DNA of 64,000 nucleotides from Pseudobutyrivibrio sp. Its GTDB lineage: Bacteria; Bacillota; Clostridia; Lachnospirales; Lachnospiraceae. How positions within the stretch are numbered: the first letter of the stretch is position 1; each line of letters begins with the position of its first letter. The notes under the pieces were generated by a model, which was not told where the DNA came from, searched no databases, and was given only the letters and a program-made list of their open reading frames with translations. Of this stretch, positions 7,133 to 55,944 are shown piece by piece. The DNA lies in NCBI RefSeq assembly GCF_015057185.1, contig NZ_SVEV01000017.1, forward strand, positions 1-64,000. Reading direction: 5' to 3'. Made by a program: the position numbers and the translations under genes.

Positions 7133-8119
7133 CTATGCATTGATTGTAGAATCAAAATTCTTAATTCTTTCATTCATAAGCTTATCAAGCTTTTCCTTAT
7201 TTGCCATAATCTTTGGACCACAAATTGCACCAAATCCTTGAATTTCCAGTGTGTGCTCTCTAAGCCCCTTGAATGTACCACGCGCACGCTCCTGCTCTTC
7301 TTTTGTAAACTCTACCTGGATTCCATCATTAACAATTGAAAGCTGACCATGAATTCCACAGATTGGGCATGTTACTGTTGTAGAACCTGGGTTAACCATA
7401 AGAAGTCTCTGATGACATACTGGACAAACCTCTTCAGGCTTTCCTTCTGGACGGAAGAACTCAACTGAGTCATCCTCAAGACCAAGAACTGTTCTCTTAC
7501 CCATCTCGTGCATATTCTCAATAAGCTTGTCATCAAGGTATGGATTTCCTGTTGTACCCATGCAATTAGCATTGTAATTGCCCATTACCTTCATCATTGG
7601 AGGGAATCCAAAGATATGAAGTGTTGCTGTACCCATTGATGTCCAATCGTCTGTGATAGCTCCACCAATCGAAATATATGATACAGTTCTCTTCTTGAGT
7701 CGCTCCATTGGAAAATCATCAGCATTTCCTGGGAGCTCACCATTTCTTCTCTTATCGAGAACATAAGTAATTGCAGAATAATCATGTCGGCATGAAAATC
7801 TGTCAATAAAATCCTTTAGCTGACCTACTGGCTGAAGAGCGTATACTGGGGCACCAAGAATAATTGCGTCAGCCTCACGAATTTTATCCTCAAGAGCTTG
7901 AAAATCATCTTGGAAAATACATACATTATCTTTTCCCTTCTCAAGAGCTGTGGAGCAAGCACCACAGCCACGGCATCTACCTATGTTCATGTTTATCGTA
8001 TTTACGAATTCGATTATTGCATCCGGCTTAGCGGACTTTGCACCAAAAAGAGCCTCTTTTACTAATATATCTGAGTTTCCATTCTTTCTACCAAAAGAAA
8101 TACCTAAAACTTTCATCAT
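7133..8119 (-). CDS. Flavodoxin-like NADPH-dependent FMN reductase with C-terminal zinc ribbon
   Basis: 328 residues. The N-terminal half is a multimeric flavodoxin/FMN-reductase fold (MKVLGISFGRKNGNSD) with the ferredoxin-like RCRGCGACSTAL cluster seen in iron-sulfur flavoproteins. The second half carries a Cys4 zinc ribbon, CPVCHQRLL followed by CPICGIHG. It probably shuttles electrons from NAD(P)H to a reductase or acceptor. A second ATG three bases in is equally usable. It is 12 bp downstream of the importer ATPase gene, suggesting it belongs to the same catabolic operon. It contains one CGTAAATACG motif (7997-8006). Confidence 0.8.
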   Translation of the reverse strand: MMKVLGISFGRKNGNSDILVKEALFGAKSAKPDAIIEFVNTINMNIGRCRGCGACSTALEKGKDNVCIFQDDFQALEDKIREADAIILGAPVYALQPVGQLKDFIDRFSCRHDYSAITYVLDKRRNGELPGNADDFPMERLKKRTVSYISIGGAITDDWTSMGTATLHIFGFPPMMKVMGNYNANCMGTTGNPYLDDKLIENMHEMGKRTVLGLEDDSVEFFRPEGKPEEVCPVCHQRLLMVNPGSTTVTCPICGIHGQLSIVNDGIQVEFTKEEQERARGTFKGLREHTLEIQGFGAICGPKIMANKEKLDKLMNERIKNFDSTINA

Positions 8120-8131
8120 CTTTCTCCATTT

Positions 8132-9094
8132 CTATATAAATTGTTCTGCATAGTGACAAGCCACAACGTGATTTGGCTTCATTTCCCTAAGCTTTGGTTC
8201 CTCTGCATAGCATTTTTCTGTTGCATAAGGACATCGAGCTGCGAATCGACAGCAAGGCTTTGGATCGATTGGCGATGTAAGTTCTCCTTTTAACACCATT
8301 CTCTCATGTTTTGCATGTACATCAGGAATAGGTATAGCACTAAGCAATGCCTGTGAATATGGATGAATAGTGTGTTTAAATATTTCATCCGCAGGACATT
8401 TCTCAATCATCTGACCTAAGTACATAACTACAATGTCATCTGAGATATGTTTAACAACTGACATATCGTGAGTGATAAACATGTATGTGAGGCCTCTTTC
8501 CTCCTGTAAATCCTGAAGTAGATTTAAAATCTGTGCTTGAATAGAGACATCAAGAGCGGATACCGGCTCATCACAAACAATGAACTCAGGGTTAAGTGAT
8601 AGGGCTCTGGCAATGCCTATACGCTGACGACGTCCGCCGTCAAGTTCATGAGGGTAAACGCCCTCTAGTCTCTTTGCAAGCCCAACAAGTTCCATCATCT
8701 CTTTGGCCTTTGCAGTAACCTCAGATTTTGACATTCCCTTGTTGTTAGTTTTAATAGGTTCCTCAACAAGCTGAAGAACGTTCATTCTTGGATCCAAGCT
8801 GGCATATGGATCCTGGAATATCATCTGTATATTTGCACGATATTTTTTCTTAAATTCTTTAATTGGCATATTTGCAATATCTACGCCGTTATATAATACT
8901 TCTCCTGATGTTGGCTCATGAAGTCTCATGAGAGTTTTTCCAAGTGTGGATTTACCACAACCTGACTCACCAACAACACCTACTGTTTTTCCTTTTTCAA
9001 TACTTAAAGATACATTATCTACTGCATGAAGGGTTCCTCGAGGAGTAGAAAAATATTTCTTCAGGTTTTTAATCTCTAATAAATTCTCTGCCAT
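8132..9094 (-). CDS. Peptide-type ABC importer ATPase, OppF/DppF class
   Basis: A 320-residue cytoplasmic ATPase. Walker A GESGCGKST, Walker B IVCDEPVSALD and the H-loop ITHD are intact. The signature reads LDGGRRQRIG instead of the usual LSGGQRQR, a variant known in some clostridial OppF proteins. The C-terminal oligopeptide-ABC domain has the typical CCRFAARCP cysteines. Its ATG overlaps the stop of the OppD-class gene (TAATG), so the two ATPases are coupled. It would power uptake through the permeases at 10-12 kb. Confidence 0.92.
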   Translation of the reverse strand: MAENLLEIKNLKKYFSTPRGTLHAVDNVSLSIEKGKTVGVVGESGCGKSTLGKTLMRLHEPTSGEVLYNGVDIANMPIKEFKKKYRANIQMIFQDPYASLDPRMNVLQLVEEPIKTNNKGMSKSEVTAKAKEMMELVGLAKRLEGVYPHELDGGRRQRIGIARALSLNPEFIVCDEPVSALDVSIQAQILNLLQDLQEERGLTYMFITHDMSVVKHISDDIVVMYLGQMIEKCPADEIFKHTIHPYSQALLSAIPIPDVHAKHERMVLKGELTSPIDPKPCCRFAARCPYATEKCYAEEPKLREMKPNHVVACHYAEQFI

Positions 9095-15654: not shown

Positions 15655-16803
15655 TTATATTGTTACCCATGCTGCATCCTGATTACTGCTTTCCACACAT
15701 GCATGTGTAAATTTAACCCCATGTACACCTGCATCTACCGTTGGAAAATCGTAGTCCTTCTCTGTTAATTTTTCCCCATTCTTTTTCTTTAGGAGCGCCT
15801 TTGCCCATACTTTGTACATATTAGCAAATGCTACATATAATCCTTCAGGATGTCCTGATGGTAACCTATTTAGCTCGGCAGCATACTCTGACATATATGC
15901 CATTCCTCTGTGGCAAACCTGAGTAGGCTGACCCTTTTTAGTAACATATAAAACATTAGGATTCTCTTGCTGCCATTCGATAGCACCCTTTGTACCGAAT
16001 ATTCTCACCACCAGACCATTCATATGTCCTACACACACTTGTGATGAGCAAAATACGCCATGGGCTCCATTATCAAACTCAACGAGAATATTTGCATTTA
16101 AATCTAGAGGCTGATTAAAATAATCAAGCTTTGCTGCAACTCTTTTTACAGTAAGTCCTGTCATATAAGAAACTGTATGTTCAATATGAGTGCCAATATC
16201 ACCAACACAGTTTGATATACCAGCAACCTTAGGATCCTTTCTCCATACAGAAAGCTTATTCATGGTGTCCTCGCCAGCTTCCACGTCATCAATTAACCAT
16301 TCCTGAAGGTATTCCGCATTTACGTTAATAACCTCTCCTATTTCGCCACTAAGGATTCTCTCCCTAGCTTCTTTAACCATTACATTTCCAGAATATGAAT
16401 AGTTAACACCAAAAAGTAATCCCTTTTCAGCTGCGATTTTTTTCAATTCTTCTGCTTCGTATTCTTCAAAGCAAAGAGGCTTCTCACAGAAAACGTGAAT
16501 ACCATTTTCAAGGAAAACCTTTGCCACACTATAGTGGACTCTATTTGGAGCTGCGATGGTTACAAAATCAATTCCATCCTCTCTAGCTCCTTCCTTGATA
16601 GCCATATCCTCATAGCTGTCATAAACACGCTCATCATCCAGTTCATAAAACTCTTTACAGGCTTTATTTTTCTCTGGGTTTGTACTAAATGCGCCTGCAA
16701 CAAGGACACAGGTTTTATCAAACTCTGCAGCGATTCTATGAACATTACCTATGAACGAATCAAGGCCTGCTCCTACAACACCATATCTAAGCTGTTTCAC
16801 CAT
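15655..16803 (-). CDS. Gfo/Idh/MocA family NAD(P)-dependent sugar oxidoreductase
   Basis: About 382 residues. The N-terminal Rossmann fold has YGVVGAGLDSFIG, the family Lys lies in FCEKPL near residue 120, and DIGTHIEH around 205-212 supplies the Asp/His pair. Members oxidise hydroxyls of sugars, inositols or glycosides; DgpA, which 3-oxidises C-glycosides before deglycosidase cleavage, belongs to this family. With the TIM barrel downstream of its promoter and the deglycosidase-like pair at 0.2-1.6 kb, 3-dehydrogenation of a glycoside is a plausible role. The ATG at 16,803 follows GGGGGA; the upstream in-frame start is a TTG. It holds a CGTAAATGCG variant motif (16315-16324). Confidence 0.85.
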   Translation of the reverse strand: MVKQLRYGVVGAGLDSFIGNVHRIAAEFDKTCVLVAGAFSTNPEKNKACKEFYELDDERVYDSYEDMAIKEGAREDGIDFVTIAAPNRVHYSVAKVFLENGIHVFCEKPLCFEEYEAEELKKIAAEKGLLFGVNYSYSGNVMVKEARERILSGEIGEVINVNAEYLQEWLIDDVEAGEDTMNKLSVWRKDPKVAGISNCVGDIGTHIEHTVSYMTGLTVKRVAAKLDYFNQPLDLNANILVEFDNGAHGVFCSSQVCVGHMNGLVVRIFGTKGAIEWQQENPNVLYVTKKGQPTQVCHRGMAYMSEYAAELNRLPSGHPEGLYVAFANMYKVWAKALLKKKNGEKLTEKDYDFPTVDAGVHGVKFTHACVESSNQDAAWVTI

Positions 16804-16818
16804 AATCAAATCCCCCTA

Positions 16819-20495: not shown

Positions 20496-20519
20496 AATTT
20501 CTTTCTCCTTTAATTAATT

Positions 20520-20529
20520 CGTATTTACG
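20520..20529 (-). repeat. CGTAAATACG dispersed motif (intergenic copy)
   Basis: The only intergenic member of nine perfect copies. The others are at 7997-8006, 22298-22307, 27126-27135, 29850-29859, 31628-31637, 40829-40838, 50939-50948 and 55575-55584; one-base variants CGTAAATGCG lie at 16315-16324, 22931-22940 and 57980-57989. All read in this orientation along the sense strand of their gene, including the single plus-strand case at 40,829. It is an interrupted palindrome, CGTA-AA-TACG. Confidence 0.75.
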
Positions 20530-20531
20530 TA

Positions 20532-21038: not shown

Positions 21039-21974
21039 TTATTTGTATATTGGATCTAGCACTGTGTCTATATAATTTTTTGTAAGTAATATGGTTGCAA
21101 GTGGCTCAGGTGTTCCATCAGATTCGATTCCAACCCAGCCCTTGTGATTGTGCTTTTTCATAAGCTCCCACAAGCCTTCAAAGTCAAGGACTCCACCACC
21201 TGGCTCCCAGAACCATCTGCCACCTTTTTCATCAAACTCTGCACCTGGACCAAATCGCTTTTTATCAGGTGCATTAACATAAGTTGTATCCTTAATGTGG
21301 AAATACTGAACTCTATCATGATAAGCATCATAGAATTTCAAAATATCCTTACCCATGATTGCTACCTGTGCAGTATCCAAACAGTAGTAAACATATCTTG
21401 GATCAGTCATCTCTAAGAATTTCTCATGGTCATATTTATTTACTGCGCACCAAAACTCATTATGGATTGATACTGCCAGTCCTTTTTCTGCACACATGCG
21501 ACCAACTGTATTCATACACTCTGCCACATTTTTAAGTCCTTCTTCATCAAGAGGCCCTGTTCCATAGTATTGACCTGCTGGCTGAACAATTAAATTTATT
21601 CCACCACACTCAGCCAAGGCATCTATGGCCTGCCGTTCGTACACATAAATTGCTTCGTGGTTTCTCTTGTCTTGTGAACCAACATGATGAGAAAACATTC
21701 CTGTAATTCGTTCAATGCCTCTTTCTTTAGCAAAATCCTTGAAGTTTTTCATAGAGCCAAAGGCATTTTGAATACTAGGTACAGAAAAGACCATTATCTC
21801 TATTCCCTTAAAGCCTGCTCCTGCAAAATATCTAAGGATTTTATCCCAGTCCTGATAGTAATAGGCATTTCCAAAATCACCCATGTACCACTCGTTGAAA
21901 TTATTTATTTTCTTGTAGTTAATGTTTCCCCAAAGGTTGGTCATATATGAGTAATTAATATTTCTCTCTTCCAT
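21039..21974 (-). CDS. TIM-barrel isomerase/epimerase family protein
   Basis: 311 residues of the xylose-isomerase-like TIM barrel. The metal ligands are complete: Glu in SIHNEFWC, Asp in YCLDTAQVA, His in YFHIKDT and Glu in VGIESDGT. The start codon overlaps the stop of the preceding gene (TAATG), so the two related proteins are made in step and may form a heteromer. A product of sugar oxidation is the probable substrate. Confidence 0.8.
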   Translation of the reverse strand: MEERNINYSYMTNLWGNINYKKINNFNEWYMGDFGNAYYYQDWDKILRYFAGAGFKGIEIMVFSVPSIQNAFGSMKNFKDFAKERGIERITGMFSHHVGSQDKRNHEAIYVYERQAIDALAECGGINLIVQPAGQYYGTGPLDEEGLKNVAECMNTVGRMCAEKGLAVSIHNEFWCAVNKYDHEKFLEMTDPRYVYYCLDTAQVAIMGKDILKFYDAYHDRVQYFHIKDTTYVNAPDKKRFGPGAEFDEKGGRWFWEPGGGVLDFEGLWELMKKHNHKGWVGIESDGTPEPLATILLTKNYIDTVLDPIYK

Positions 21975-22966
21975 TACTTATCCCTCCCTTTGGTGTATTC
22001 TTTTTCCAATCTATTCCAGAAGGTTCTAAGTCGAAGTATTCCTTTAGGAATGTCTAGAGAATATTTAGATTCAAGAATTACAGGACCATCAAAGCCTGCT
22101 TCTTTCAAAGTTTTGTACAAACCGTTAAAGTCTATGTCACCATAGCCTAAATCCCAGTAAACTCTTTGGTTTTCACCGTCCTGAGGAAACTCTGGAGAAA
22201 TAGTAGCTCTCACATTTGCCTCGTCCTTGAATTTGGAATCAGTGAAATATGCCACCTGTAGCTGGTTTGCATACTTTTTCATGTAAACCTTGTAATCCGT
22301 ATTTACGATATATAAATGTGCTGGATCTGGAGTGTAACTAATTAGGTTTTTATCTAGCTTTTCAATAAAAGCATCTACCAAATCACCTGCCATAGTCGTC
22401 CAAAATTCATTTCTCACTACAGCATTAATTCCTAGTTCCCTACATTTTTCTCCAATTCGATTAACACATGCTGCCATTTCATCTTGAAATTTCAAGATTT
22501 TACCTTCGTCATCACCAAATTCCTGTTTTAGAAATCCAGCGCCAGGTGTCGGCGAAATAACAAGAGTACTGCCTTTTAATTCTTTTAATGCTTGTGCAGC
22601 ATCAACCGCATACTGGTAAAATCCATCAGCATATTTATCCATTGTCAGTCCAGTTTCAAAAAGGCTGTTATACATAGCCTGAGCTGAAACTGACACAGCT
22701 TCTACATTCTCAATTCCCTTGTCATTAAGATAATCAAGATATCCTGCTGGGGAGCCAAAGCGAGTCCTTATTGATGCTGTGCATATTGGCGCACCATTAC
22801 GGGAAACATTTTCCGTATTAGGTACAAGTGGTATCATCACAGAAGTAAACCCTGCTGCCGCAAACATATCAGTAAGTTCATCCCAATACCATTTTGCTGC
22901 TCTTAAGAATGCTCCTGGTCCGCTAGTATCCGCATTTACGATACCGTAGCTTGCAACTGGCTTCAT
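21974..22966 (-). CDS. TIM-barrel isomerase-like protein with altered metal site
   Basis: 330 residues, first gene of the catabolic operon, with GGAGG before the ATG. The fold matches the next gene, and Glu (VVRNEFWT), Asp (YTPDPAHLY) and Glu (ILESKYS) are kept, but the strand carrying the metal His in its relatives (YFHIKD) here reads AYFTDSKF with no His. It may therefore be a non-catalytic partner of the 21,039 product, or use another ligand. It contains one CGTAAATACG and one CGTAAATGCG motif. Confidence 0.78.
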   Translation of the reverse strand: MKPVASYGIVNADTSGPGAFLRAAKWYWDELTDMFAAAGFTSVMIPLVPNTENVSRNGAPICTASIRTRFGSPAGYLDYLNDKGIENVEAVSVSAQAMYNSLFETGLTMDKYADGFYQYAVDAAQALKELKGSTLVISPTPGAGFLKQEFGDDEGKILKFQDEMAACVNRIGEKCRELGINAVVRNEFWTTMAGDLVDAFIEKLDKNLISYTPDPAHLYIVNTDYKVYMKKYANQLQVAYFTDSKFKDEANVRATISPEFPQDGENQRVYWDLGYGDIDFNGLYKTLKEAGFDGPVILESKYSLDIPKGILRLRTFWNRLEKEYTKGRDK

Positions 22967-25079: not shown

Positions 25080-27494
25080 TTAAGAATTTTTCTTTACACT
25101 AATGCATGCAAACTCATTTGATTTTAATTTCACTGAGAACTTCAGGACGTTATCCTGAGCTTCTTCTGTTGAAATTGTAAGTCCCGGTTCACATACTCTT
25201 CTACAAAATTTGATGTCATTTTTCGAAAGTGATTTTTCAAAATCAAGACTCTTCCAAATGCCGAGAATACTTCCATGGTCCTCATTGACACGATATACTC
25301 TGGCTTTGTATTTGCCATCATCAATATTTGATATTTCAAAATTAATATCAAGAGAATCATTGTCTTCGTAATATTTCCAAAGCTCTTTTTTATTAATGTC
25401 CCCTTCGTTAGTTAAATAATAACTATAATTTAGTTTCTTTTGATTATGGCAGAGGATAATCATGCTACCATTCTCGTCAATGGTAATGATATAGTTTTTC
25501 CCCTGACCTACTACCTTTGGCTTGAGCCTGTTCATAAAATCAAATGCAAATGCTGAAGGCTTGAATATACTATCTTTTGTAATAAGCCCAGAGCCACCAA
25601 AAAGCAGCTCATTAGTGTCAGAAAACTCAACTAGTCTGTCACTGGCTATAAAGTAGCCAACTCCCTCTATTTTATCTGCCACCTGCAAAAGATTTTTGAT
25701 TATATATGCCCCCTTAAAGCAGGAATCATTTATTGCGTTTCTATCTGAAAGAGTGGCATTCCATTCGCTGACAAACAGCGGCATATTTGGTGGAAATCCA
25801 GCTTCATTCATACAACCGCGAATCATATCAGTAGCATGGAGCAAGAAATCATTGTCAGTGCTTCGTCTAGAATACAAATCATTTTTTATTTCTCCACTTG
25901 TGTATGGGAAACTAATCATTGATATGAAATCTGGTTGATATGGTTGCTTTCTCCATTCTCCAAGGAAATCTGTAATCCATTCCTTTCCTCTATCATCTCT
26001 AATTCCGCAGCCGCCAAATCGAACCTTTTTATTATGCTTGCGAATAGCCTGAGCTGTTGCATTAAAAATATCATAGTAATTGTAGTTAGGTATTGTTTCC
26101 GAGCGCTCATCATACCACAATTCTACTATCCAAGTGCCGACTTCCTCAGAACCATAATAATCATTGAGATGTAAAAAGAATGCTTCTATTAGCTTTACCC
26201 AAACATCTCTATCATATCGTAAATCCGGATTTAGTGTACAAACAATAGGTTCACTAACATTTTTTATTATCCTTTTAGGCTTGATTCCTAATTCTATTGC
26301 AGGCTTAAGGTTATGCTCTAACACAAAGTCTATGATGCCATCAATTTTTGAAAAGTTATACTGTCCTTCATCATCATCTACAGCTAAAAGCATAGTCTTT
26401 GTAAATAAATTCCAAAACCTCACATATTCAAAATGTAACTGATCCGCAAGCTTTGCAATATGCTCTCTGATTTCAGCCTGCATCATATCATCTGCGCATC
26501 CACCATTAATTGCATTGCGATATCCATGCTTGATAGATTGCAAGCTTTCAAAATCTCGTATTGAATGTTTCGCAATGACTTCATTTGGATTGTCAAACAC
26601 ATCCACTAAATCTGTGAAACCATTTTTTAAAATATATTCCAATTTATCCTGAAGCTTTTTATCTAAGGTTGTACTCTTATTCTTATGTTTACATTCTCGT
26701 TCTTTTCTAACCTCTGATGGTGTCTGACCATACACCTGCTTGAAGCCCTTGTTAAAAAGGGCCACTGTGGAAAATCCATTATTAAATGCCACCTTTGTTA
26801 TAGGATCATCTGTGTACATCAAATCATCATAAGCATGGCTCAAACGCACATTGGTAACATATTTGAGAAAACTCATTCCAAATGTTTTCTTAAAAAATCT
26901 GGATAAATAAGCCTCTGATAAATATAGCTTGTCCGCCAAATCCTTTAGGGATAATTCATTTTTATAATTTCCCATTACATAATTATTAATCTGCGCAATA
27001 CGAGTATCTATTGAATCCTCATTTTTGTATCTAATATCCGAATCTCTCAGAAGAAAATTTATGGTAAGGACATCTAATATCTCATAGCAAATGGAAATAT
27101 GCCCAAAATCAGAAGTAGACCCATTCGTATTTACGTAATGTGTCAAAAGCTTTTTTATTTTGCTTCTAAGTAAATCATATTGTTCTGAATCCCCTAGATT
27201 GCTATTGCATAGAAAACGTACATCCAGCGCTCCTAAAATATCTGCCATAAGACCAAATGAAATAGATATTTTAACAAGAAGTCCATCATCTGAAAGTCTG
27301 ATGCAATGCTTTTTATTTGCATTTACCAAATAGATTCCTTCTTCAAAAAGAGTAATTGTCTCGTTCCCCATTTGAATATCAGCACGCCCTTGCAAAACAT
27401 AGCAGAGCTCCACACTCTGATGAAAATGCTCAGTCTCTATTCGTTTGTCACAAATCTCTATTCGTACACGATCCTTAGCCCTATTTATCTCCAT
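25080..27494 (-). CDS. AraC-type regulator fused to a GH39-like glycosidase domain
   Basis: About 804 residues. Order: cupin sensor domain (TEHFHQSVELCYVLQG), AraC double HTH (LSLKDLADKLYLSEAYLSRFFKK; ITKVAFNNGFSTVALFNKGFK) ending near residue 280, then a long GH39 beta-xylosidase-like (beta/alpha)8 region. The presumed acid/base Glu lies in IVELWYDE and the nucleophile in FVSEWNA. No signal peptide, so the glycosidase part is cytoplasmic and may be a sensor rather than an enzyme. The start at 27,494 is chosen for the GGGGGA site just upstream. It contains a CGTAAATACG copy. Confidence 0.85.
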   Translation of the reverse strand: MEINRAKDRVRIEICDKRIETEHFHQSVELCYVLQGRADIQMGNETITLFEEGIYLVNANKKHCIRLSDDGLLVKISISFGLMADILGALDVRFLCNSNLGDSEQYDLLRSKIKKLLTHYVNTNGSTSDFGHISICYEILDVLTINFLLRDSDIRYKNEDSIDTRIAQINNYVMGNYKNELSLKDLADKLYLSEAYLSRFFKKTFGMSFLKYVTNVRLSHAYDDLMYTDDPITKVAFNNGFSTVALFNKGFKQVYGQTPSEVRKERECKHKNKSTTLDKKLQDKLEYILKNGFTDLVDVFDNPNEVIAKHSIRDFESLQSIKHGYRNAINGGCADDMMQAEIREHIAKLADQLHFEYVRFWNLFTKTMLLAVDDDEGQYNFSKIDGIIDFVLEHNLKPAIELGIKPKRIIKNVSEPIVCTLNPDLRYDRDVWVKLIEAFFLHLNDYYGSEEVGTWIVELWYDERSETIPNYNYYDIFNATAQAIRKHNKKVRFGGCGIRDDRGKEWITDFLGEWRKQPYQPDFISMISFPYTSGEIKNDLYSRRSTDNDFLLHATDMIRGCMNEAGFPPNMPLFVSEWNATLSDRNAINDSCFKGAYIIKNLLQVADKIEGVGYFIASDRLVEFSDTNELLFGGSGLITKDSIFKPSAFAFDFMNRLKPKVVGQGKNYIITIDENGSMIILCHNQKKLNYSYYLTNEGDINKKELWKYYEDNDSLDINFEISNIDDGKYKARVYRVNEDHGSILGIWKSLDFEKSLSKNDIKFCRRVCEPGLTISTEEAQDNVLKFSVKLKSNEFACISVKKNS

Positions 27495-27529
27495 CAAGTC
27501 CCCCATTGTAAAATAATCCAAGCCATTGT

Positions 27530-28244: not shown

Positions 28245-31200
28245 TTACTTAAATAATTCATCAATCTTAGCCTGAAGAGTTCCATCTTTTGCATATGGTA
28301 AGGCGTCTACCTGCTTAAAATTATGCTTTGTTATAGTAACATCTTCATCAAATCCCAAGATAAAGCTAGTAGCTATCTTATAAATAATTTCAGTTGGCGC
28401 CAAGCCAAATACCTGCCTTTCAAAGATATGCTTCAGTCTTTCTTCCTTATCAGGAAATAGTTCTTTCATCCTTTCGCTTTGATACAGCCTTTTTACTATT
28501 TCAGTAATATAGAGCCCTGATTTCATATAAAGATCTATAAAAGTTTTATCTGGATTATCAAAACAACCAGGGTTTTCTTCTTCCAGCATATCAACCATCT
28601 TTTTTACAACATCCTTTGGTGTATATATCTGATTTGTCTTCTGCGCAGGGATATAATCAAAAATATCTTCCACACTCTTCTCATCAAAATAATCTGCTAG
28701 CTTCTTTTTTAGATTCAAAAACTCTTTAACTGAATCATCAAATACAACTGAATCAAAAAGATGACCATTAAAATATCTTTCCTCGCCAGTTTCACTATCA
28801 ATATATGGTCCACCATCTCTTAGAAATCTAAACTGTTCCAATGTGATACTAGTTACCTCAAGAAAGACCTTATCCGGGATAATGTTGTCAAAGGTTGCAA
28901 GAGTTACAGTATCATCACCATATGCCATCAAAAATGATGGTATAGTTCTAGAAAAACCACGTAGATGATCTCGAATACCAGCCTCAATCACATCACGTTC
29001 TCTTTCTTTGATTTTTGTATCAACAGTTTTAGCAGTTTCAAGTCTGGATTCTTCTTCAAACTTTGACATTACATCCGCTAGGCCGGTCTGGAATTTTTCT
29101 TGTACATTCTGTTTTCGCTGATTGAATTCTTCATTTATCTCTTCAGTTGACTTTCCAGTTTCATGACGATTTTGCATCGCCTCGATACGTTCTTGCTCTA
29201 AAACGTTTTCCTCGATGGTATAATTGTTTACTGCCCTTTCAACTACTCTTTCAACATCAGAATTAAGTTTTGATTCTAATTGTCTAACATCAGATTTTTT
29301 CAAATCATCTTTATAGCTTTCCCTTGTAGATTCTACTATATTATCGACAATCATCCCCTTTGCATAATCTACTAGAACCCTTGTTAGTTGTTCCTTGCGA
29401 TCAGATTCGTTATTTACAGCCAAATTTTCTATAATTGTTGGTATCTTTTCAGTATCAACAACTTTGTCTCCAAATATATCTTTTGAAAGACCTATCACAT
29501 ACTCTTCTGAAAGTTCCACTTCACCATTATCATTCAAGGACAAATCCTGTTTTACTTCCTCGCTGAGAGAAACATTTCCCTTTGGTTCAGATACAGCTGT
29601 GAATTGTTCTATGATATCCATAACCTCTTTAGGTGCAGAAAAGACATTTCCTATGTTTTGGAAAAGGAAGTTACTCATAAATCCTCGCCTAACTACTTCA
29701 ACTGACTTAATCTTTCTTGGGATACTTAATACCTGCTCTGCATCAAGCTCTACTAGCTCACCGTCTTCATCTTCACCAATTACAGGAAAGAAATTTAGAA
29801 GTTCTCTAATATTCTGTTTTCTAGCAACAATATCACCTCTACCAGATACCGTATTTACGGACAAATCATTAGCAAACTCTTCAAAAATTACAAGTGTTCT
29901 GGCTGGATCAAAATCAAAAACATAAGCATTTTCCTTACGTTTAAACACACCATCCTCATGAAACAGGCATGGATTCTGTGCCCTGAAAGCCGCTTGCATG
30001 TATAGCGATGGTGACTTCATATTAGACAACATCAATACACCAGTCCACTCAGGAATAGTTATACCTGTTGTAAGCTGTCCTACAGATATGGTAATTGTCT
30101 TTTCATAATTAGCTATAGCTTTTACAACTTTGTCATACGACTTTTCATTTTCATCATCATCATCTATCTTGCCATCACCCGCAGCAAGTATAATCTCATA
30201 CTCCGCAAACACTGGATGTTCCTTAAGTTTTTTGGCAAGAGCCTTTGCACTATCAACTCTGTCTAATAACCAGACTGTATGCTTTAATTCATTCCTAAGC
30301 TCTGGAGTAGAAAACGGGAACTTTGTTTGGACTGTGAGTGCATCCAAAAATTTGTCCACTGAAGACTCGTGTACAAAGCTCCCATTATTCGTGCTAAAGA
30401 ATTCGTTCAAGTCGAAGGCATACTCCACCGTCTCTCCCTGAATCTCTATTCCCTGCTTCAACTCATCTTTGATAATTTCAGACATCTGATATGTAAAAAG
30501 ATTAAGCTTTGGCAAATTGATATATGGATTTTCCTGCTCCTCTCCATTATTCCAATCACGCTTTCTTTTCTGCTCATCAGCATATGTATAATTAAAGATT
30601 GCTTCTTCAGAGAACTTATTATTTGCCAATGCTTTGAATGGTGTACCAGAAAGATGTAATGTGAACTTACGGTTAATCTGATCAAATGCAACATCCGTCT
30701 TATATGTATCAACGCCCTCATGAGCCTCGTCAACTACCAGTACATCCCAGGTCATGCCATTGGACTTACTGATTTCTGCCAGCTTGTCATATTGTCCACC
30801 AAAATAGATTGATCCCTTCATATCTTGAAGACTTACAAACTCTATACATCCCTTGTAATTATCTAAGGCTGCCTCTGTAAAAATTGTAGTAAACTCTTGA
30901 CGAGTTAATACTCCTGGGCGATTCTTAAGTGCGTCAACTTCGCTAACAAAATAATAGCCAGAATCTGTACCAATATATTTCATATAATCGCTATACCATG
31001 AGTTAGCGATAGCTGGTCTGTTTGTAACAATAAGCACAGACTGTGCTCCAATAGACTTACAAAAATCATATACAGCCAAAGTTTTTCCAAATCTAGGCTT
31101 GGCATTCCAAAGAAACTCTCCATTTTCGTGAGAGTTATAATAAGCTTTTGTTAAATTAACTGCCTCCTTTTGTTCCTCTCTTAATTGATAAGGAATAATA

Positions 31201-31571: not shown

Positions 31572-32639
31572 TTATACCATCTCCTTTACATTGGTTTCTA
31601 TGAATTCTATCTCTTCTTGTGTTAATCCGTATTTACGATACAGTTGTTGATCTATTTCTTGGATTGATTTCGACCAGTCTATATCTGAGGATGGGGTGAA
31701 GTCTTGAAGTGGGACATATTTAAAATTACCCGGTGTCATATTTTGAGTTTTTTTCAAAATAGATAATAAAGACCTAGAAAATCTTCCTTTAAGATACTTC
31801 AACAAATTATCTGCTTCTTCCTTACTTTTATAATTTCCAATGCTAAAAAAAGTTTCAGTATGTCCCATTCCAGGTTCTGCCACAATTGATGGACCAAGAG
31901 TTTCTCCAAATTCTCCTATTCCACTTGCTTTAGGAATTAAAACTTTATATAAATTCAAATTCTTAACTTCATTTATATATTCTTTTTTTACAAATTTCAC
32001 AACACGCTCATTATTAACACGTCCTACTATTTTTATAAATTCACATTTTGGATCATTTAATTTATCCAAAAAAATCATCGGCAATTTATTTATTACATTA
32101 GATTTTAAATCGTATTCATGCCCCTTACTCAATAAAGGTTTTTCCTTGCCGTTCTCATAAATTTTTGTAGTTTTTATTTCAGGAAAGTCCATATGCATTT
32201 TTTCAGTAAAATGATAAGCATATCCAGATACAGCAATAGTATCTATCCCAACAAAACCTTTACTTTTAAGAACCTTTTGTAATACAGTATTCATTTCTTT
32301 ATACTCAACAAATACCCCAATTGGTGTGAATTTGTTTATTGCATCATAATATGTGATAGCTACTCCACCTTTTATATCAGTATTAGAAAAAATATTAGTA
32401 CAATCACTCTCATAATCTAACACCTTGAAATGCTCATCATTCAGCATTTTTTCGTTCCATGATTTGGGTGTCGATCCTGCATTAAACAAAAATCTGGCAG
32501 GATGTATTAATTCAACTTTTGTTGCTATTTCACACGCTGCGTCAATAAACTTGTCATACACCGGTGGTGCAAACCCCTCATTGTCCCCCAGCGTATTATC
32601 TTGATAAGGCGGATTCCCAATAGCAAAATCAAACTTCAT
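31572..32639 (-). CDS. Eco57I-like adenine methyltransferase fragment (motif IV plus recognition region)
   Basis: About 355 residues. The catalytic motif NPPYQ occurs at residues 9-13, so the S-adenosylmethionine-binding motif that normally precedes it is absent from this polypeptide. The rest (KVLDYESDCTNIF, GGVAITYYD) matches the motif V-VIII and target-recognition part of Eco57I-type N6-adenine methylases. The ATG at 32,639 is preferred (AAGGAG upstream) over a GTG at 32,666 that lies inside an operator. The X/I motifs could come from the end of the helicase or from the protein at 33,548. One CGTAAATACG copy is at 31628-31637. Confidence 0.82.
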   Translation of the reverse strand: MKFDFAIGNPPYQDNTLGDNEGFAPPVYDKFIDAACEIATKVELIHPARFLFNAGSTPKSWNEKMLNDEHFKVLDYESDCTNIFSNTDIKGGVAITYYDAINKFTPIGVFVEYKEMNTVLQKVLKSKGFVGIDTIAVSGYAYHFTEKMHMDFPEIKTTKIYENGKEKPLLSKGHEYDLKSNVINKLPMIFLDKLNDPKCEFIKIVGRVNNERVVKFVKKEYINEVKNLNLYKVLIPKASGIGEFGETLGPSIVAEPGMGHTETFFSIGNYKSKEEADNLLKYLKGRFSRSLLSILKKTQNMTPGNFKYVPLQDFTPSSDIDWSKSIQEIDQQLYRKYGLTQEEIEFIETNVKEMV

Positions 32640-32656: not shown

Positions 32657-32675
32657 TGACATTCACTAGATGTCA
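32657..32675. promoter_or_regulatory. 19-bp operator upstream of the NPPY methyltransferase gene
   Basis: TGACATTCACTAGATGTCA, an inverted repeat with TGACAT/ATGTCA arms, one of five related sites around this restriction locus. It sits directly ahead of the ribosome site of the gene starting at 32,639. Confidence 0.75.
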
Positions 32676-34625: not shown

Positions 34626-35792
34626 TTAAAAACCTCTTTTCCTCAAATTCAAAAACAATGAATATACCGCCACAGCCTCAATTACTATACCTGCAAAAAT
34701 AAATTTAACTGCGACCCCATCACCAATTATCCCAGCGCAGAAGTTAACCAAGATTGGCGAAAAGGCACCACCAAGATTAATAAGCGCAAGATAAACAGAT
34801 ACCGTAAATGCGTTAGTCTCAGGTCTAGTATTCTGAGCCAACAGATATGTACCTGCTGCATTAAACAAGGCAAAGCCATAGCCTACGAATAGACTACCTA
34901 TTATTATAGCTACAAAATGGTGAATCAAAAATGGAATTATAAATCCTATTCCAACAATTGCTAAGGTAACTGTCTCGATATGATTTCTAGTCTTCATCAC
35001 GATTCCCCTAAACATGGCACCACCCACAATTCCACCTAAGGTGTTAACCATAGTTACAAGGCTTGCTACAGATGCACCCTTGCCAAGAACATCTGCAACA
35101 TATGCTGAGGAGTTTGTATTAAATGCATTTTGAATTGCAAAATAAATGATTCCAATGATGAAAATTCCTAAAATGTAAGGATTCATCTCAAACTGACTTG
35201 ATTGTTTTGAGTCAGTTATCTCAGAGGCAGCGTGTTTCTGAGGCTCGCCCTTTGGCATACAGATGGCAACCATAACAATAATTACAACTACTAAGGTAAA
35301 TACTAAGTATGTATATCTCCAACCAAATCTAGCCAGCTGTCCACCCATAAAAATAAATGAAAGAGCCCCAAGAGCTGTGCAGGTAGCATTTAATCCCATA
35401 AGAGATGCCTGTTCTTCTTTTTCAAAATACTGGACAATGAAGCCATTAATTAGTGGCATCATAAAACCAGAGCCAAGTCCAATAATTGCGCTGCCAACAA
35501 GTAATTGCCATATATTAGAATTAAAGAAAAATGGAAACAATCCACCTACCAAATAACAACAAAGTGATGCCAATGCGATTGTCTTTTTGTTTACATATCC
35601 CATTATGTATCCACTAATTGGAGAACTTACAATAAACAATAGATTAGGCAAAGTAATTATCATTTGCACCATTGTTTCACTGACACCGCTGAATTCACGA
35701 CCTATGTCTGCCAAAACTGGAGAAAGTGCCATATATGAAAGTGCAACTGCACAAATAGACAGTACACCTACTTTGATTTTTGTTTTAGACAT
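34626..35792 (-). CDS. MFS transporter (drug/metabolite efflux type)
   Basis: About 388 residues with twelve hydrophobic segments. The loop between helices 2 and 3 reads GYIMGYVNKKTIALAS, a degenerate form of the MFS motif A, and helix 5 has GALSFIFMGGQLARFGWRYTYLVF, typical of 12-helix exporters. AGAGGTGG precedes the ATG at 35,792; the in-frame GTG at 35,801 lies within that site. It sits between the restriction genes and the toxin-antitoxin pair with no obvious partner. Confidence 0.85.
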   Translation of the reverse strand: MSKTKIKVGVLSICAVALSYMALSPVLADIGREFSGVSETMVQMIITLPNLLFIVSSPISGYIMGYVNKKTIALASLCCYLVGGLFPFFFNSNIWQLLVGSAIIGLGSGFMMPLINGFIVQYFEKEEQASLMGLNATCTALGALSFIFMGGQLARFGWRYTYLVFTLVVVIIVMVAICMPKGEPQKHAASEITDSKQSSQFEMNPYILGIFIIGIIYFAIQNAFNTNSSAYVADVLGKGASVASLVTMVNTLGGIVGGAMFRGIVMKTRNHIETVTLAIVGIGFIIPFLIHHFVAIIIGSLFVGYGFALFNAAGTYLLAQNTRPETNAFTVSVYLALINLGGAFSPILVNFCAGIIGDGVAVKFIFAGIVIEAVAVYSLFLNLRKRGF

Positions 35793-35894
35793 AAAAACCA
35801 CCTCTTATCAATTTATTACATACTACAATTCTAGTAAATATTGGCGTTTGAATAAAACAACTGTTTTCAAGATTATGATAAATTTTTGCAAAAA

Positions 35895-40660: not shown

Positions 40661-41485
40661 ATGCTTAATTCGATTCAATACAAGAAAAATGAATACAACA
40701 GACTTCCTTTGATGGTTGTATTATTGGGACTTGACCATAATCAAGAGCCAGTATATCGTCCCCATGGTGTGCCTATGTATCAGGTGCTATATTGTAAAAA
40801 TGGACGTGGCGAATTGGTGGTTAATAATCGTAAATACGTTATTGATAAAGGTCAATGCTTCGTTATTCAAAAGGATACTCCCCATGAATATCACAGCACC
40901 AGCGATGAATGGATAGTTAATATTGTAGGCTTCACTGGAATAATAGTACCAACTCTTTTACGCAGTCTCAAAATAGAATCATCCGGCGCATACCTACTTA
41001 AAAGTAATGGATTTTTCAATGCTCATGTTCACCGATTAAATGAGCTTGCAAAAGAAAAAAAACAGCGCACCAAGCTAGAGCTGTCCCAAGAGCTATATTG
41101 TCTGCTTACTGATTTGTCCAACGAACTAACTCAGATTAAATCTAACGCTGCAGACTACGGAAATCCTACCATCACTCAGGTAATCGAATATATCGAATCA
41201 AATTACTCAGAGGATATAGCGCTTTTAAAGCTGGCGGAAATATCCTCCCGCACACCAGAATACCTGTGTAGTGTTTTCAAAAAGCACACCGGATTAACAA
41301 TCGTAAACTATATTAATAACATTCGTTTGCTACATGCTTCCCTTACTTTAATCGAGGACCCTTCTGCTCCAATAAATGAGGTAGCTATTTCCTGCGGTTT
41401 TAGAAGTCCTAGCTACTTTGGCAAGCTTTTTCACAGTAGATTTAAAATGACACCACAGCAATATAGGCTGAAACATATCATGTAA
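40661..41485 (+). CDS. AraC-family transcriptional regulator
   Basis: 274 residues: an N-terminal cupin (PMYQVLYCKNGRGELVVNNRKY) and a C-terminal AraC double HTH (ALLKLAEISSRTPEYLCSVFKK; INEVAISCGFRSPSYFGKLF). It probably senses a sugar and controls the divergent GH43 gene and perhaps the GH35-like gene downstream. It contains the one plus-strand CGTAAATACG (40829-40838), encoding Arg-Lys-Tyr. Confidence 0.88.
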   Translation: MLNSIQYKKNEYNRLPLMVVLLGLDHNQEPVYRPHGVPMYQVLYCKNGRGELVVNNRKYVIDKGQCFVIQKDTPHEYHSTSDEWIVNIVGFTGIIVPTLLRSLKIESSGAYLLKSNGFFNAHVHRLNELAKEKKQRTKLELSQELYCLLTDLSNELTQIKSNAADYGNPTITQVIEYIESNYSEDIALLKLAEISSRTPEYLCSVFKKHTGLTIVNYINNIRLLHASLTLIEDPSAPINEVAISCGFRSPSYFGKLFHSRFKMTPQQYRLKHIM

Positions 41486-50710: not shown

Positions 50711-52678
50711 TTAGACCCTTCTAGCTGCGTGATATCCAGCATCCATTGCCTGGTAAATCATTGCGACTTTATTACAATCGCCAATTATATAATATTCATC
50801 AACCAAATCACAAAGTTCATCCACCTGAGCAGACTTAGGTCTAAAACCAAGAGCACATACTACGCTATCAGCCTCAACCAAGAAGCTTCCCTTCTCATTT
50901 TCAACCATAACGCCCTTATCTGTTATTTCAGTTACCTTCGTATTTACGTATAAAGTTGCACTCTCTTTTACATGTGGCATGAGACCGCCTCTGTAGAATG
51001 AGTTAACCTCCATTGCCACATCAGGCTTCATTTCGATAATAGAAACTTCATGGCCTTCTGCTTTAAATGAGCAAGCTGCCTCGGCACCTACGAGTCCACC
51101 ACCCATGATTGCAACCTTCTTGCCAAGCTTTTCTGGATGAAGCTCTGCTTCGATTGCCATAACAACATTATCACCATCAATACCCTTGATTGGTGGACGA
51201 AGCTCATTAGAACCAATTGCTACAAAAAGTGCATCTGGAGCGAATTCCTTTACATACTCAGGAGTAACCTCTGTGTTAAGGACAACCTTTACACCAGCTT
51301 TTTCTACTCTGCGCTCAAGTACGCTGCAAAGCTTCTTAATATCCTCCTTGAAGAAAGCAGAACCTGCTGGATGAAGATTTCCACCTAAACGTCCTTCCTT
51401 TTCTACAAGAGTTACATCATGACCGCGCTTTGCTGCTGTGATTGCAGCTTCCATACCAGCTGGGCCACCACCAGCAACGAGAATCTTTTTCTTGAATTCC
51501 GGCTCTGGATAACCATGCTTTTCCTCAAGCTGCTGACCCTGGCATGGGTTAACAGTACATTTAATCATCTCAAGCTGACCTGTTGCTCCAAAGCATTCAT
51601 AGCATCTCAAGCATGGGCTAATATCATCTGCTCTACCCTCTAATGCTTTCTTTGGAAGATATGGATCTGCCACAAGAGCACGACCAATTTCAACCATATC
51701 AGCCTGACCACTAGCAATAATCTCTTCCATCTGAGCTGGATCATTAAGAGAACCTACACAGGCTACTGGCTTGTTAACATGCTTTTTAATCTCAGCCGCA
51801 AGATAAACATTCACACCTCTTGGGAAAAATGAATTTGGATGAGTTCTACAGAACATTGCAGGATCCTCATGATTTCCACATGAGATGTTGAACATATCAA
51901 CCTTATCCTCAACCATCTTTGCAATTTCCACATAATCTGAAAGTGTAAGTCCACCTTCCTGGAAATCATCACCGTTCATACGAAGCTCAATTGCCACTGT
52001 AGGACCAACTTTTTTTCTAACAGCATCAAGAGCAAGTGACAAGAAGCGCACTCTATTTTCTAATGAACCACCAAACTCATCAGTTCTATGGTTGAAAAGT
52101 GGCGACATAAACTGGTTGAACAACCAACCATGAGCAGCGTGAACCTGAACCATATCATATCCAACGTCCTTGCAAAGAGCTGCTGCTTTACCATAGGCTT
52201 CAACTATTTCATATATTAATTCCTTTGGCATCTCATAAACATGACCTGCTGGCATTTCCATCTCACTAGGTCCATATGCCTTTTCATCCTTGCCGATATC
52301 GCCGCCTACTGATGTAAGACCACCATACATTCCACCATGTGAAAGCTGAATATTTGCAAGTCCTCCTGCATTGTGAATCATACGAGTTGATTCTGTTAAC
52401 CCCTGTCTGACACCAAATGCATCCAACTGAAGCTGCTTATTATGGCTCTTTCCTGTTTTGCTATGAGGAATAGCCTCACCATAAGTAACAACTGCGCAGC
52501 CACCAAGAGCTTTCTCCTCTAAGTAAGCTGCCATCTCAGGCGTAAACAATCCCTCTGTTGTAATCATGCTTGGACTTGTTGGTGCTGCGATTATTCTGTT
52601 TTTTAATCTAATATTTCCTATTCTAATTGGTTTAAATAGGTTTGGATATAAATCCTTGCCTGGGAATCTATCTGACAT
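50711..52678 (-). CDS. Old-yellow-enzyme/2,4-dienoyl-CoA reductase family flavoprotein
   Basis: 655 residues. An FMN TIM barrel (LFKPIRIGNIRLKNRIIAAP; HAAHGWLFNQFMSP) is followed by a 4Fe-4S cysteine set (CLRCYECFG then KCTVNPCQG) and an FAD/NAD(P) half with VAGGGPAGMEAA and AIMGGGLVGAEAA. This is the layout of FadH, BaiCD/BaiH and of gut enzymes reducing enoates or plant phenolics. AGGAGG fixes the ATG at 52,678. Divergent from the FGGY kinase. It has a CGTAAATACG copy near 50,939. Confidence 0.88.
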   Translation of the reverse strand: MSDRFPGKDLYPNLFKPIRIGNIRLKNRIIAAPTSPSMITTEGLFTPEMAAYLEEKALGGCAVVTYGEAIPHSKTGKSHNKQLQLDAFGVRQGLTESTRMIHNAGGLANIQLSHGGMYGGLTSVGGDIGKDEKAYGPSEMEMPAGHVYEMPKELIYEIVEAYGKAAALCKDVGYDMVQVHAAHGWLFNQFMSPLFNHRTDEFGGSLENRVRFLSLALDAVRKKVGPTVAIELRMNGDDFQEGGLTLSDYVEIAKMVEDKVDMFNISCGNHEDPAMFCRTHPNSFFPRGVNVYLAAEIKKHVNKPVACVGSLNDPAQMEEIIASGQADMVEIGRALVADPYLPKKALEGRADDISPCLRCYECFGATGQLEMIKCTVNPCQGQQLEEKHGYPEPEFKKKILVAGGGPAGMEAAITAAKRGHDVTLVEKEGRLGGNLHPAGSAFFKEDIKKLCSVLERRVEKAGVKVVLNTEVTPEYVKEFAPDALFVAIGSNELRPPIKGIDGDNVVMAIEAELHPEKLGKKVAIMGGGLVGAEAACSFKAEGHEVSIIEMKPDVAMEVNSFYRGGLMPHVKESATLYVNTKVTEITDKGVMVENEKGSFLVEADSVVCALGFRPKSAQVDELCDLVDEYYIIGDCNKVAMIYQAMDAGYHAARRV

Positions 52679-52746
52679 AAAACTGCCTCCTAACAAATTT
52701 TCTACATCAACTTTACCGAGATGCCATTAGCGCCGCAATTTTTTTA

Positions 52747-54468: not shown

Positions 54469-54488
54469 TGGCGGAGAAATCTCCGCCA
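54469..54488. terminator. Terminator between convergent genes
   Basis: TGGCGGAGA/TCTCCGCCA, perfect 9-bp stem with two central bases and short T-runs on both sides, 54 bp after the FGGY kinase stop. Confidence 0.75.
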
Positions 54489-54516
54489 AATGTTTTATCT
54501 ATATACAATTCAATAT

Positions 54517-55944
54517 CTAAGCAAGGTTGAATTTATCAGGATAAGCGTCGGTATTTGGAATAGAAACATAGCCTGAACTTGTAAGCATATTAAGATGCCA
54601 GTCTGGCATGGCTATCATTGGCTCTGCATAGAAATCTTCTATATACCATTTTCCCTCTATTTTTACAAATCGATGAACGTATTTGTTTACAAATATCATA
54701 TAGTCAACCTGCCCTGGCGAATTTTGCTTTTCTCCCAAGTTAGTGGTGCCACAATCAAACCAAGTGCCTACGACATGATTCTCATCATTATCGAAAGCTA
54801 TTACAGGTGTTGTGGGCGCATGAAATGTATAAAATCTATTCTTATATAATGCTGTCATTCCATTAGTTTTCTCACGAATAGCTTCTATGTTTTCTAAAAC
54901 TGGAGTCTTATTACCAAAACTTCTGATCAGCATTCTCACATTTCCCTGATGGTCAAAATAGCGAGATACATACTCTGGTAACTCCCCTCGTCTACATCCA
55001 TATACCCAACCATTTATTATATTTTCAATTTCCATGGCAGTCTTTATGTTAATTCGACTATCATCCACTTGATCAACAGACCATGGCTCATCACTCTGAC
55101 CGCATTTATCATATCTCAGGTCGTTTCGATATTGGTTGATTGGCAATTCAACAATTGAAGAAATTGTCATTGTAAAAATTTTCCATGCACCATTCTCTTT
55201 AATGTAAGTAGATTCCAAGACACACAATTGTCTGTGGAGCGTCCAATTTGATTTATTTTTATCCTCCGCATCAATTCGGTACATTTGAACAGTAAATATT
55301 CCCCTTGCTGAATTACCATCTTCATTTATTTCAATAATAGGCGCTCCACTTATTCCCAAAAATTTGTAGCAATGATTATTTAACCGTTCACTATTAATTA
55401 TTCTATTTACCTCTTGTCTAATGGCATCTCTACCATGAACGGTTCCATCAGTAACATTTTCAATATTCAAAGTTGCCCCATCCGAAATAGAAAAGAGAAT
55501 ATCTACCCCATGTAGTCTATGTTCAAAAAATTTATTCTGAAGATTTCTAATTGCTAGAATCTCTTCAGAATTACCGTATTTACGAATTGGAATACTCGGA
55601 TAACAACTTTTAATATTTATCTCTCCCTGATAAAACTCTGGCTCCATCTCCTGAATAGTCATCCATGAGACATCTATCATGGAGATTCCTTTGGAATTTT
55701 CAATAAATCTCCCCTCTAACTTTTTTATGATGACTCTTGCGACTGAATCACCTGCTCTACTACGGACTATTTGCCAAGTGAATGTATCACAAGACATTCC
55801 ACCTTCATTCTCTTTTATCCAGTAGGTAGGTGATGCCCACATTGAAAATTCAAAAACGTCAGTATTATTGTATTCTCTAAGGCTACTCTTGTGGGCTAAA
55901 TGTAGATAACGAGCCATCTCATTTTCAAGTTGTATGTAATCCAT
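54517..55944 (-). CDS. Protein with two SnoaL-like domains
   Basis: 475 residues. Two NTF2/SnoaL modules are visible, about residues 140-270 (DGTVHGRDAIRQEVN; GAWKIFTMTIS) and 310-460 (IENIINGWVYGCRRGELPEYV; EGKWYIEDFYAEPM); the first 130 residues may be a third, diverged copy. No signal peptide. Function unknown; relatives include hydratases and isomerases of lipophilic rings. The ATG at 55,944 follows GAGGA, which lies inside the end of the preceding gene, so the genes are coupled. Confidence 0.7.
   Translation of the reverse strand: MDYIQLENEMARYLHLAHKSSLREYNNTDVFEFSMWASPTYWIKENEGGMSCDTFTWQIVRSRAGDSVARVIIKKLEGRFIENSKGISMIDVSWMTIQEMEPEFYQGEINIKSCYPSIPIRKYGNSEEILAIRNLQNKFFEHRLHGVDILFSISDGATLNIENVTDGTVHGRDAIRQEVNRIINSERLNNHCYKFLGISGAPIIEINEDGNSARGIFTVQMYRIDAEDKNKSNWTLHRQLCVLESTYIKENGAWKIFTMTISSIVELPINQYRNDLRYDKCGQSDEPWSVDQVDDSRINIKTAMEIENIINGWVYGCRRGELPEYVSRYFDHQGNVRMLIRSFGNKTPVLENIEAIREKTNGMTALYKNRFYTFHAPTTPVIAFDNDENHVVGTWFDCGTTNLGEKQNSPGQVDYMIFVNKYVHRFVKIEGKWYIEDFYAEPMIAMPDWHLNMLTSSGYVSIPNTDAYPDKFNLA

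What the first reader, a model, noticed from the sequence alone, without database searches (positions are those of the whole stretch)
7997..55584. A 10-bp motif, CGTAAATACG, is strongly enriched and always on the sense strand
Seen directly: nine perfect copies (7997, 20520, 22298, 27126, 29850, 31628, 40829, 50939, 55575) plus three CGTAAATGCG variants (16315, 22931, 57980). By base composition I would expect only about 0.1-0.2 copies on both strands. Every copy reads CGTAAATACG along the sense strand of its gene, including the one plus-strand case. The coding copies use two reading frames (Val-Asn-Thr five times, Arg-Lys-Tyr three times), so DNA, not protein, is conserved. Genes carrying it are unrelated. 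This is the pattern of a DNA uptake sequence, a chromosome-organising or recombination motif, or a methylation site.
Basis: partly seen in the sequence, partly recalled or inferred. Interest (0 to 1): 0.75.

Follow-up and report, generated by a model that had tools for sequence, protein, structure and literature searches.

The report
Genus-wide palindromic DNA signal inside genes
In nearly all sampled species of the gut bacterium genus Pseudobutyrivibrio, a 14-letter palindromic DNA word is repeated hundreds of times inside unrelated genes and often preserved between species, which suggests that an unidentified protein reads it along the chromosome.

Summary
CGTAAATACG occurs 9 times in the window (0.01 expected) and 108 times in the 3.25-Mb genome (reversed control 14). 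It is one form of a palindrome, WHCGYAWWTRCGDW: 16 sites in the window, 301 in the genome, 199-436 in 27 of 29 species of the genus (controls 6-19). Nearest named contigs are Pseudobutyrivibrio. Among 297 other-genus genomes of the family the maximum is 33; among 397 others of the phylum sample, 34.

Sites are mostly coding and not explained by codons. They keep their place between species about 5 times more often than permuted palindromes, switching among allowed letters. "Always sense" fails genome-wide, but a bias remains (94:35). Two deep-branching species lack sites.

Best reading: dispersed sites of an unidentified homodimeric DNA-binding protein acting on chromosome scale. DNA uptake and intragenic regulation are not excluded. 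C5-methylases do not track the sites; no second genus-wide ParB/Noc protein was seen. No report of the motif was found.

The parts
7995..8008 (.). palindromic site ATCGTATTTACGAA in an FMN_red-type flavoprotein gene (7133-8119, -); sense FVNTI
16313..16326 (.). site TCCGCATTTACGTT (one arm C) in a GFO/IDH/MocA oxidoreductase gene (15655-16809, -)
20518..20531 (.). site TTCGTATTTACGTA, intergenic between a glyoxalase-like gene and an aldo/keto reductase gene, both -
22296..22309 (.). site TCCGTATTTACGAT in a xylose-isomerase-like gene (21974-22966, -)
22929..22942 (.). site TCCGCATTTACGAT near the start of the same gene (21974-22966, -)
27124..27137 (.). site TTCGTATTTACGTA in an AraC-HTH/GH39 gene (25080-27521, -)
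29848..29861 (.). site ACCGTATTTACGGA in a ResIII/T5orf172 gene (28245-31571, -)
31626..31639 (.). site TCCGTATTTACGAT in an Eco57I-type methylase gene (31572-32666, -)
34801..34814 (.). site ACCGTAAATGCGTT, AA centre antisense, in an MFS transporter gene (34626-35801, -)
40827..40840 (.). site ATCGTAAATACGTT in an AraC-type regulator gene (40661-41485, +)
50937..50950 (.). site TTCGTATTTACGTA in an NADH:flavin oxidoreductase gene (50711-52696, -); core identical at the same place in 4 of 4 Pseudobutyrivibrio-named loci that align there, absent in 3 of 3 other loci given to the call (of 18 fetched)
55573..55586 (.). site ACCGTATTTACGAA in a SnoaL_4 domain gene (54517-55959, -)
57915..57928 (.). 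site TACGTATATACGGA (TA centre) near the end of a GH3 gene (57861-60158, -)
57978..57991 (.). site ATCGCATTTACGAA in the same GH3 gene
58621..58634 (.). site ACCGCAATTACGAT (AT centre) in the same GH3 gene
61283..61296 (.). site TCCGTATATACGTA in an HTH_11/PRD regulator gene (60269-62224, -); a site at the same place in 4 of 5 Pseudobutyrivibrio-named loci, with TA or TT centre

Best explanation
The word is the binding site of a homodimeric, sequence-specific DNA-binding protein that an ancestor of most Pseudobutyrivibrio species gained, or whose specificity changed there. About 200-440 sites per genome, nearly all inside genes, are kept by selection; the protein would bind along gene bodies as a chromosome-organising or nucleoid-associated factor. 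Shown: the genus-wide palindrome, two arms that vary independently, conservation through allowed variants, coding location, clumping over 0.8 Mb of one genome, absence from two deep branches. Inferred: that a dimer reads it, that its role is on chromosome scale, and that there was one gain. The protein is not identified.
For: Symmetric consensus: among 48 exact copies the base before the core is never G and the one after never C, and both arms tolerate the mirrored change. Arm changes look independent: neither/right/left/both 117:42:21:6 (sums), about 7 'both' expected. CGTA-2-TACG is the top gapped palindrome of the sample, 59 against 1.8; the core occurs 93 times against 0-23 for 23 permuted palindromes. 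Same-place retention 266 of 597 pair comparisons against 49 of 533 for permuted palindromes at 76% mean identity, letters swapping within the consensus. 81 of 85 sites coding in 464 kb that is 8% non-coding; 10 of 265 distinct sites intergenic. In 0-820 kb of G250 sites clump: variance/mean 2.67 in 20-kb bins, 0 of 2000 simulations. Peptide-compatible places are used 86/586 in the G000 sample but 9/353 around oriC, 1/92 on one plasmid-like contig and 0/358 in site-less G265. Use falls with codon adaptation in three of four sets. Genus-restricted; the two species without sites lie outside a supported clade of 24 (98/99).
Against: No candidate protein was found. A Noc-like model has no visible protein: a strong Spo0J-type match in 27 of 29 genomes, no second ParB_N match in 9 genomes and none at all in G274, and canonical parS words in all 10 ori regions. 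No ori/ter pattern in G250: 70 exact sites in the ter half, 59 in the ori half plus 7 unlisted. A symmetric protein does not by itself predict the sense bias of the AA centre (94:35), though tolerance of Asn/Lys over Phe/Ile may. Clumping is weak for exact sites: G252 1.19 at 20 kb, P 0.05, not significant at 50-100 kb; G250 1.24 in 50-kb bins, untested. Many places differ wholly between species, and G251 and G252 have no site in a block where G250 has 10. One gain is not shown: only 16% of bootstrap trees join G263 and G265 as one side of a branch.
Confidence: 0.48

Rival explanations
1. A DNA uptake signal: competent cells prefer DNA carrying the word, so it accumulates by uptake-biased recombination as in Neisseria and Pasteurellaceae.
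For: Short, dispersed, mostly coding, genus-specific; ComEC in 29 of 29 species. One-mismatch words relative to shuffles are 1.5-1.8 times more frequent in three site-bearing sets (0.78, 0.83, 0.91) than in site-less G265 (0.51); the ori set is 0.53. Over-representation falling with mismatch load is what passages of PMC1939737 report for uptake words.
Against: Palindromic and degenerate at four core positions, unlike the known uptake words (recalled; the H. influenzae consensus is in a passage). ComEC is also in the two site-less species. Peptide-compatible places near oriC are hardly used (9/353), not expected of a blind drive. No uptake receptor was sought.
Confidence: 0.17
2. Intragenic operators of a global transcription factor that hinder or attenuate transcription within genes.
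For: Operator-like palindrome; sense bias of the AA centre; lower use in codon-adapted genes; retained positions.
Against: No promoter enrichment (10 of 265 intergenic); genes of different families; turnover of many positions between species.
Confidence: 0.2
3. A HIP1-like iterated palindrome made and kept by methylation-linked mismatch repair.
For: Palindromic, clade-limited, absent in some members, like cyanobacterial HIP1 (abstract of PMC4390886).
Against: C5-methylase family PF00145 is absent from G000, G252 and G253, which are site-rich, and present in site-less G265. No replacement palindrome stands out in 329 kb of G265. Other methylase families were not tested.
Confidence: 0.07
4. Codon usage, base composition or chance.
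For: Core sites fall mostly in two reading frames with ordinary peptides.
Against: Dinucleotide, Markov, codon-shuffle, permuted-palindrome and relatives controls do not give it (genus against family).
Confidence: 0.01

Closest known systems
HIP1 (GCGATCGC) of cyanobacteria
   Same: Iterated palindrome of a clade, rare or missing in some members (abstract read).
   Different: Here 14 bp with graded letters, about 93 per Mb in G000, AT centre, no matching C5-methylase distribution.
DNA uptake sequences (DUS/USS) of Neisseriaceae and Pasteurellaceae
   Same: Dispersed, clade-specific over-represented short word.
   Different: Palindromic here; another lineage (Lachnospiraceae); no uptake evidence; low use near oriC at places where synonymous codons would allow it.
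Noc-binding sites of Bacillus subtilis
   Same: Palindrome of similar size scattered around the chromosome (passages of PMC8429893).
   Different: Other sequence; no genus-wide second ParB-type protein at Pfam sensitivity; no ori/ter gradient in G250.
Chi and KOPS-type polar motifs (recalled)
   Same: Over-represented short words, largely in coding DNA.
   Different: Palindromic; AA strand co-oriented with replication in 58 of the 129 listed sites of G250.

Membership tests
DNA uptake sequence | strong genome-wide over-representation limited to a clade | tested here: met
DNA uptake sequence | preferential uptake of DNA carrying the word | not testable with these tools
   needs a transformation assay
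DNA uptake sequence | competence machinery present where the word is and absent where it is not | tested here: inconclusive
   ComEC family in 29 of 29, including site-less G263 and G265
DNA uptake sequence | asymmetric word (recalled as a feature of known ones) | tested here: not met
   palindromic consensus
HIP1-like iterated palindrome | palindrome highly iterated in the genomes of a clade | tested here: met
HIP1-like iterated palindrome | co-occurrence with a methylase specific for the word or its inner part | tested here: inconclusive
   PF00145 does not co-occur; N6/N4 methylase families not tested
Noc/ParB nucleation site | a dedicated ParB-family protein besides Spo0J | tested here: not met
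   9 of 29 genomes have only one ParB_N match and one has none; the weak extra hit was read in G000 only and looks unlike Noc
Noc/ParB nucleation site | uneven ori/ter distribution | tested here: not met
   G250 exact word: 70 ter half, 59 ori half plus 7 unlisted
Transcription factor operator | concentration upstream of genes | tested here: not met
   4 of 85 and 10 of 265 intergenic
Polar motif (Chi, KOPS) | orientation with replication | tested here: not met
   58 of 129 in G250 (7 of 136 sites unlisted), with the caveat on that assembly's gene orientation
C5 methylation site | C5-methylase present in the species with the motif | tested here: not met
   16 of 29 genomes have PF00145; site-rich G000, G252, G253 do not

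The most novel reading that the evidence does not exclude
A chromosome-wide code written inside genes: one bacterial genus gained a DNA-binding protein, and its chromosomes evolved hundreds of gene-internal landing sites, kept through codon choice and less used in highly codon-adapted genes. It would be a lineage-specific bacterial chromosome organiser or self-DNA mark unlike Noc, MatP, HIP1 or uptake sequences.
Probability: 0.4. Interest if true: 0.8.

Novelty: new variant of a known kind. Interest (0 to 1): 0.62.

Why it matters
It is a natural case in which a dispersed DNA signal may have arisen once, low in a genus, with two near relatives lacking it. That makes its origin, its reader protein and its cost to genes directly testable. 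It may also help genetic work on these gut and rumen bacteria, whether the word acts in chromosome organisation or in DNA uptake.

Tried and rejected
Replication polarity: strand runs in the listings were artefacts of the listing cap; with the two lists combined there is no polarity (129 of 136 sites listed, the other 7 inferred to lie beyond 2.90 Mb).

Near-site depletion: one-mismatch words looked depleted against codon shuffles (76 against 97), but site-less G265 shows a stronger deficit (33 against 65), so the shuffle baseline is biased and the claim was dropped. Relative to G265 one-mismatch words are mildly enriched. By the same token shuffle-based enrichments are if anything understated.

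Dialect in G265: no replacement palindrome stood out in 329 kb; G263 was not sampled for this.

Second ParB: the weak ParB_N match, followed up in G000 only, is, as read from its translation, a ParB/sulfiredoxin-like plus HAD-like protein beside a purA-like gene, not Noc.

The first tree mixed strand orientations and was discarded; one search replaces it.

A gene-content look around oriC against 20 kb of G265 showed, by eye, no candidate reader. Equal 1778-bp spacings of two site pairs are not a duplication (only matches of 12-28 bases).

An earlier count said 10 core sites against about 37 expected around oriC; the recount is 9 core (8 full) sites, and the genome averages give about 42.

Sampling caution: the 20 G000 stretches were picked; they and the window hold 48 of the genome's 108 exact copies in 464 kb. 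Statistics from that sample describe a site-rich part; genome-wide counts do not depend on it. The G250 dense and empty stretches were also picked by site density, and the syntenic block starts from a dense stretch.
Full report
OBSERVATION. The nine exact copies and three named variants are present. Dinucleotide shuffles give 0.01 exact copies. The genome (3.25 Mb, 62 contigs) holds 108 copies against 14 of the reversed word. A fourth variant, at 34803, is antisense in its gene, and in 464 kb of the genome exact copies are 34 sense, 12 antisense, 2 intergenic, so 'always sense' is not general.

THE MOTIF IS A PALINDROME. In that sample the core tolerates T or C at position 3, A or G at position 8, and any A/T pair in the centre; next to 48 exact copies there is never G before or C after. 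CGTA-2-TACG is the most over-represented gapped palindrome with 4-base arms (59 against 1.8). Among 24 palindromes built by permuting the half-site the true one occurs 93 times, the others 0 to 23. Pooled arm changes are 117 neither, 42 right, 21 left, 6 both (sums), about what two independent half-sites give. This is what a symmetric dimer would read; that step is inference.

DISTRIBUTION AMONG SPECIES. By one window protein, the nearest named contigs (91-95% amino-acid identity) are Pseudobutyrivibrio; the genus name is inferred from this. Of the 23 loci, the 5 named Pseudobutyrivibrio hold 1-9 sites each and the other 18 hold none. In 29 species of the genus the exact word occurs 62-160 times in 27 and never in G263 and G265; the degenerate palindrome occurs 199-436 times in 27, 0 in G263 and 6 in G265, controls 6-19. 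Among 248 other-genus genomes of the family the exact word occurs 0-27 times. For the palindrome the maximum is 33 among 297 other-genus genomes of the family and 34, in a 7.3-Mb genome, among 397 other genomes of the phylum sample (four of these are family members also). A tree of the parA-spo0J region of 27 species (G261 and G274 not included) puts G263 and G265 outside a supported clade (98/99) of 24 site-bearing species; G266, with sites, is also outside it. One gain followed by maintenance is the simplest reading, but it is not shown: the tree is midpoint-rooted, G263 and G256 are long branches, the label needs two changes on the best tree and one in only 16% of bootstrap trees.

NOT CODONS. 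Within-gene synonymous shuffles give about 5 core sites against 86 observed; 22 of 45 Val-Asn-Thr and 12 of 33 Arg-Lys-Tyr peptides use exactly the motif codons (0.53 and 1.1 expected). That sample is site-rich because I chose stretches. A site-less relative shows that the shuffle overestimates the baseline of one-mismatch words about twofold (33 against 65), so the excesses are conservative.

CONSERVATION. In the window the core at 50939 is identical in 4 of 4 Pseudobutyrivibrio-named loci that align there at 78-82% identity, and absent in the 3 other loci given to the call (of 18 fetched); the site at 61285 is matched by a site in 4 of 5, its centre switching between TA and TT. Most other window sites had no orthologue in those loci. 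Across a syntenic block of 16 genomes (14 with sites in their genomes; G251 and G252 have none in this block), a site is matched by a site at the same place in 266 of 597 pair comparisons, against 49 of 533 for the 16 permuted palindromes with alignable copies (pairs are not independent). Against G263 and G265 it is 0 of 35. The same place shows CGTAATTACG, CGTATTTACG or CGCATTTACG in different species, the mark of selection on a degenerate binding site. Many places also differ wholly between species, so there is turnover.

WHERE SITES LIE. By a simple ORF caller, 81 of 85 sites in 464 kb are coding, with 8% of that DNA non-coding; 10 of 265 distinct sites are intergenic. Genes are of different families. 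In G250, sites over 0-820 kb are clumped (variance/mean 2.67 at 20 kb, 0 of 2000 simulations); the exact word in G252 only weakly (1.19 at 20 kb, P 0.05; not significant at 50 and 100 kb). Around oriC in 10 species (40 kb each) there are 9 core and 8 full sites, at only a few orthologous places; the genome averages would give about 42. Places where the peptide allows a site with synonymous codons are used 86 of 586 in the G000 sample, 29 of 135 in a dense G250 stretch, 5 of 171 in neighbouring sparse stretches, 14 of 193 in stretches of G000 contig 49, 9 of 353 around oriC, 1 of 92, 7 of 79 and 2 of 61 on three plasmid-like contigs, and 0 of 358 in G265. Use falls with codon adaptation in three of four sets and is low around oriC at all levels (the 10 ori regions are orthologous, not independent). 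So peptide sequence alone does not explain the gaps. There is no ori/ter gradient or replication polarity in G250.

SENSE BIAS. Pooled over three sets, the AA centre is sense 94 times and antisense 35 times, while codon shuffles predict about 3.8 to 4.2 (binomial P about 1e-8, treating sites as independent although orthologues repeat). Sites may be gained where Asn or Lys is tolerated more easily than Phe or Ile; a transcription-linked effect is not excluded.

WHAT IT IS NOT, OR NOT SHOWN TO BE. ParB-family search: a strong Spo0J-type match in 27 of 29 genomes, further matches patchy, none beyond the first in 9 genomes and none at all in G274; canonical parS words in all 10 ori regions. ComEC in 29 of 29 species leaves uptake open. 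C5-methylase family in 16 of 29, absent from site-rich G000, G252, G253 and present in site-less G265. Literature: the exact word occurs in 8 papers of the library, by title and start of abstract none on this subject; pattern spellings gave 21 papers, the 20 listed unrelated by title; Pseudobutyrivibrio with 'palindrom' gave 8, none on point by title and start of abstract; a search joining uptake sequence, palindrome and Firmicutes gave none. I read the HIP1 abstract and its section 2.6, and passages of the Noc and uptake-sequence papers.

MECHANISM. Most likely a homodimeric protein binds these sites along the chromosome with a structural or global role. The protein was not found; I could not compare the gene content of the species as a whole.

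Noticed in passing
28245-32666: A ResIII/T5orf172 gene next to an Eco57I-type methylase gene, apparently a restriction-modification locus; both carry a site.
   Followed up: partly
20520, 22298, 29850, 31628: Two pairs of exact copies have the same spacing (1778 bp) and lie 9330 bp apart; the two blocks share only short matches, so this looks like coincidence.
   Followed up: yes
L077 (G250:C1 near 2766389): The Spo0J reading frame of this genome holds an in-frame TAG.
   Followed up: no
L131-L143 (G250 340-520 and 560-640 kb): Most genes, including tuf- and fus-like ones, lie on the minus strand although dnaA/spo0J at about 2.77 Mb would make plus the leading strand; an inversion, unequal replichores or a misassembly.
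   Followed up: no
L174-L186: Plasmid-like contigs differ: 1 full site in 100 kb (G252 C2), 7 in 83 kb (G276 C2), 1 in 60 kb (G276 C3).
   Followed up: partly
L101 7552-8439: A ParB/sulfiredoxin-like plus HAD-like protein near a purA-like gene gives the weak second ParB_N match of G000 (fold names from reading the sequence).
   Followed up: partly
L141 503-4340: Type IV pilus-like genes (PilT/PilC/pilin-like by eye) in G250.
   Followed up: no
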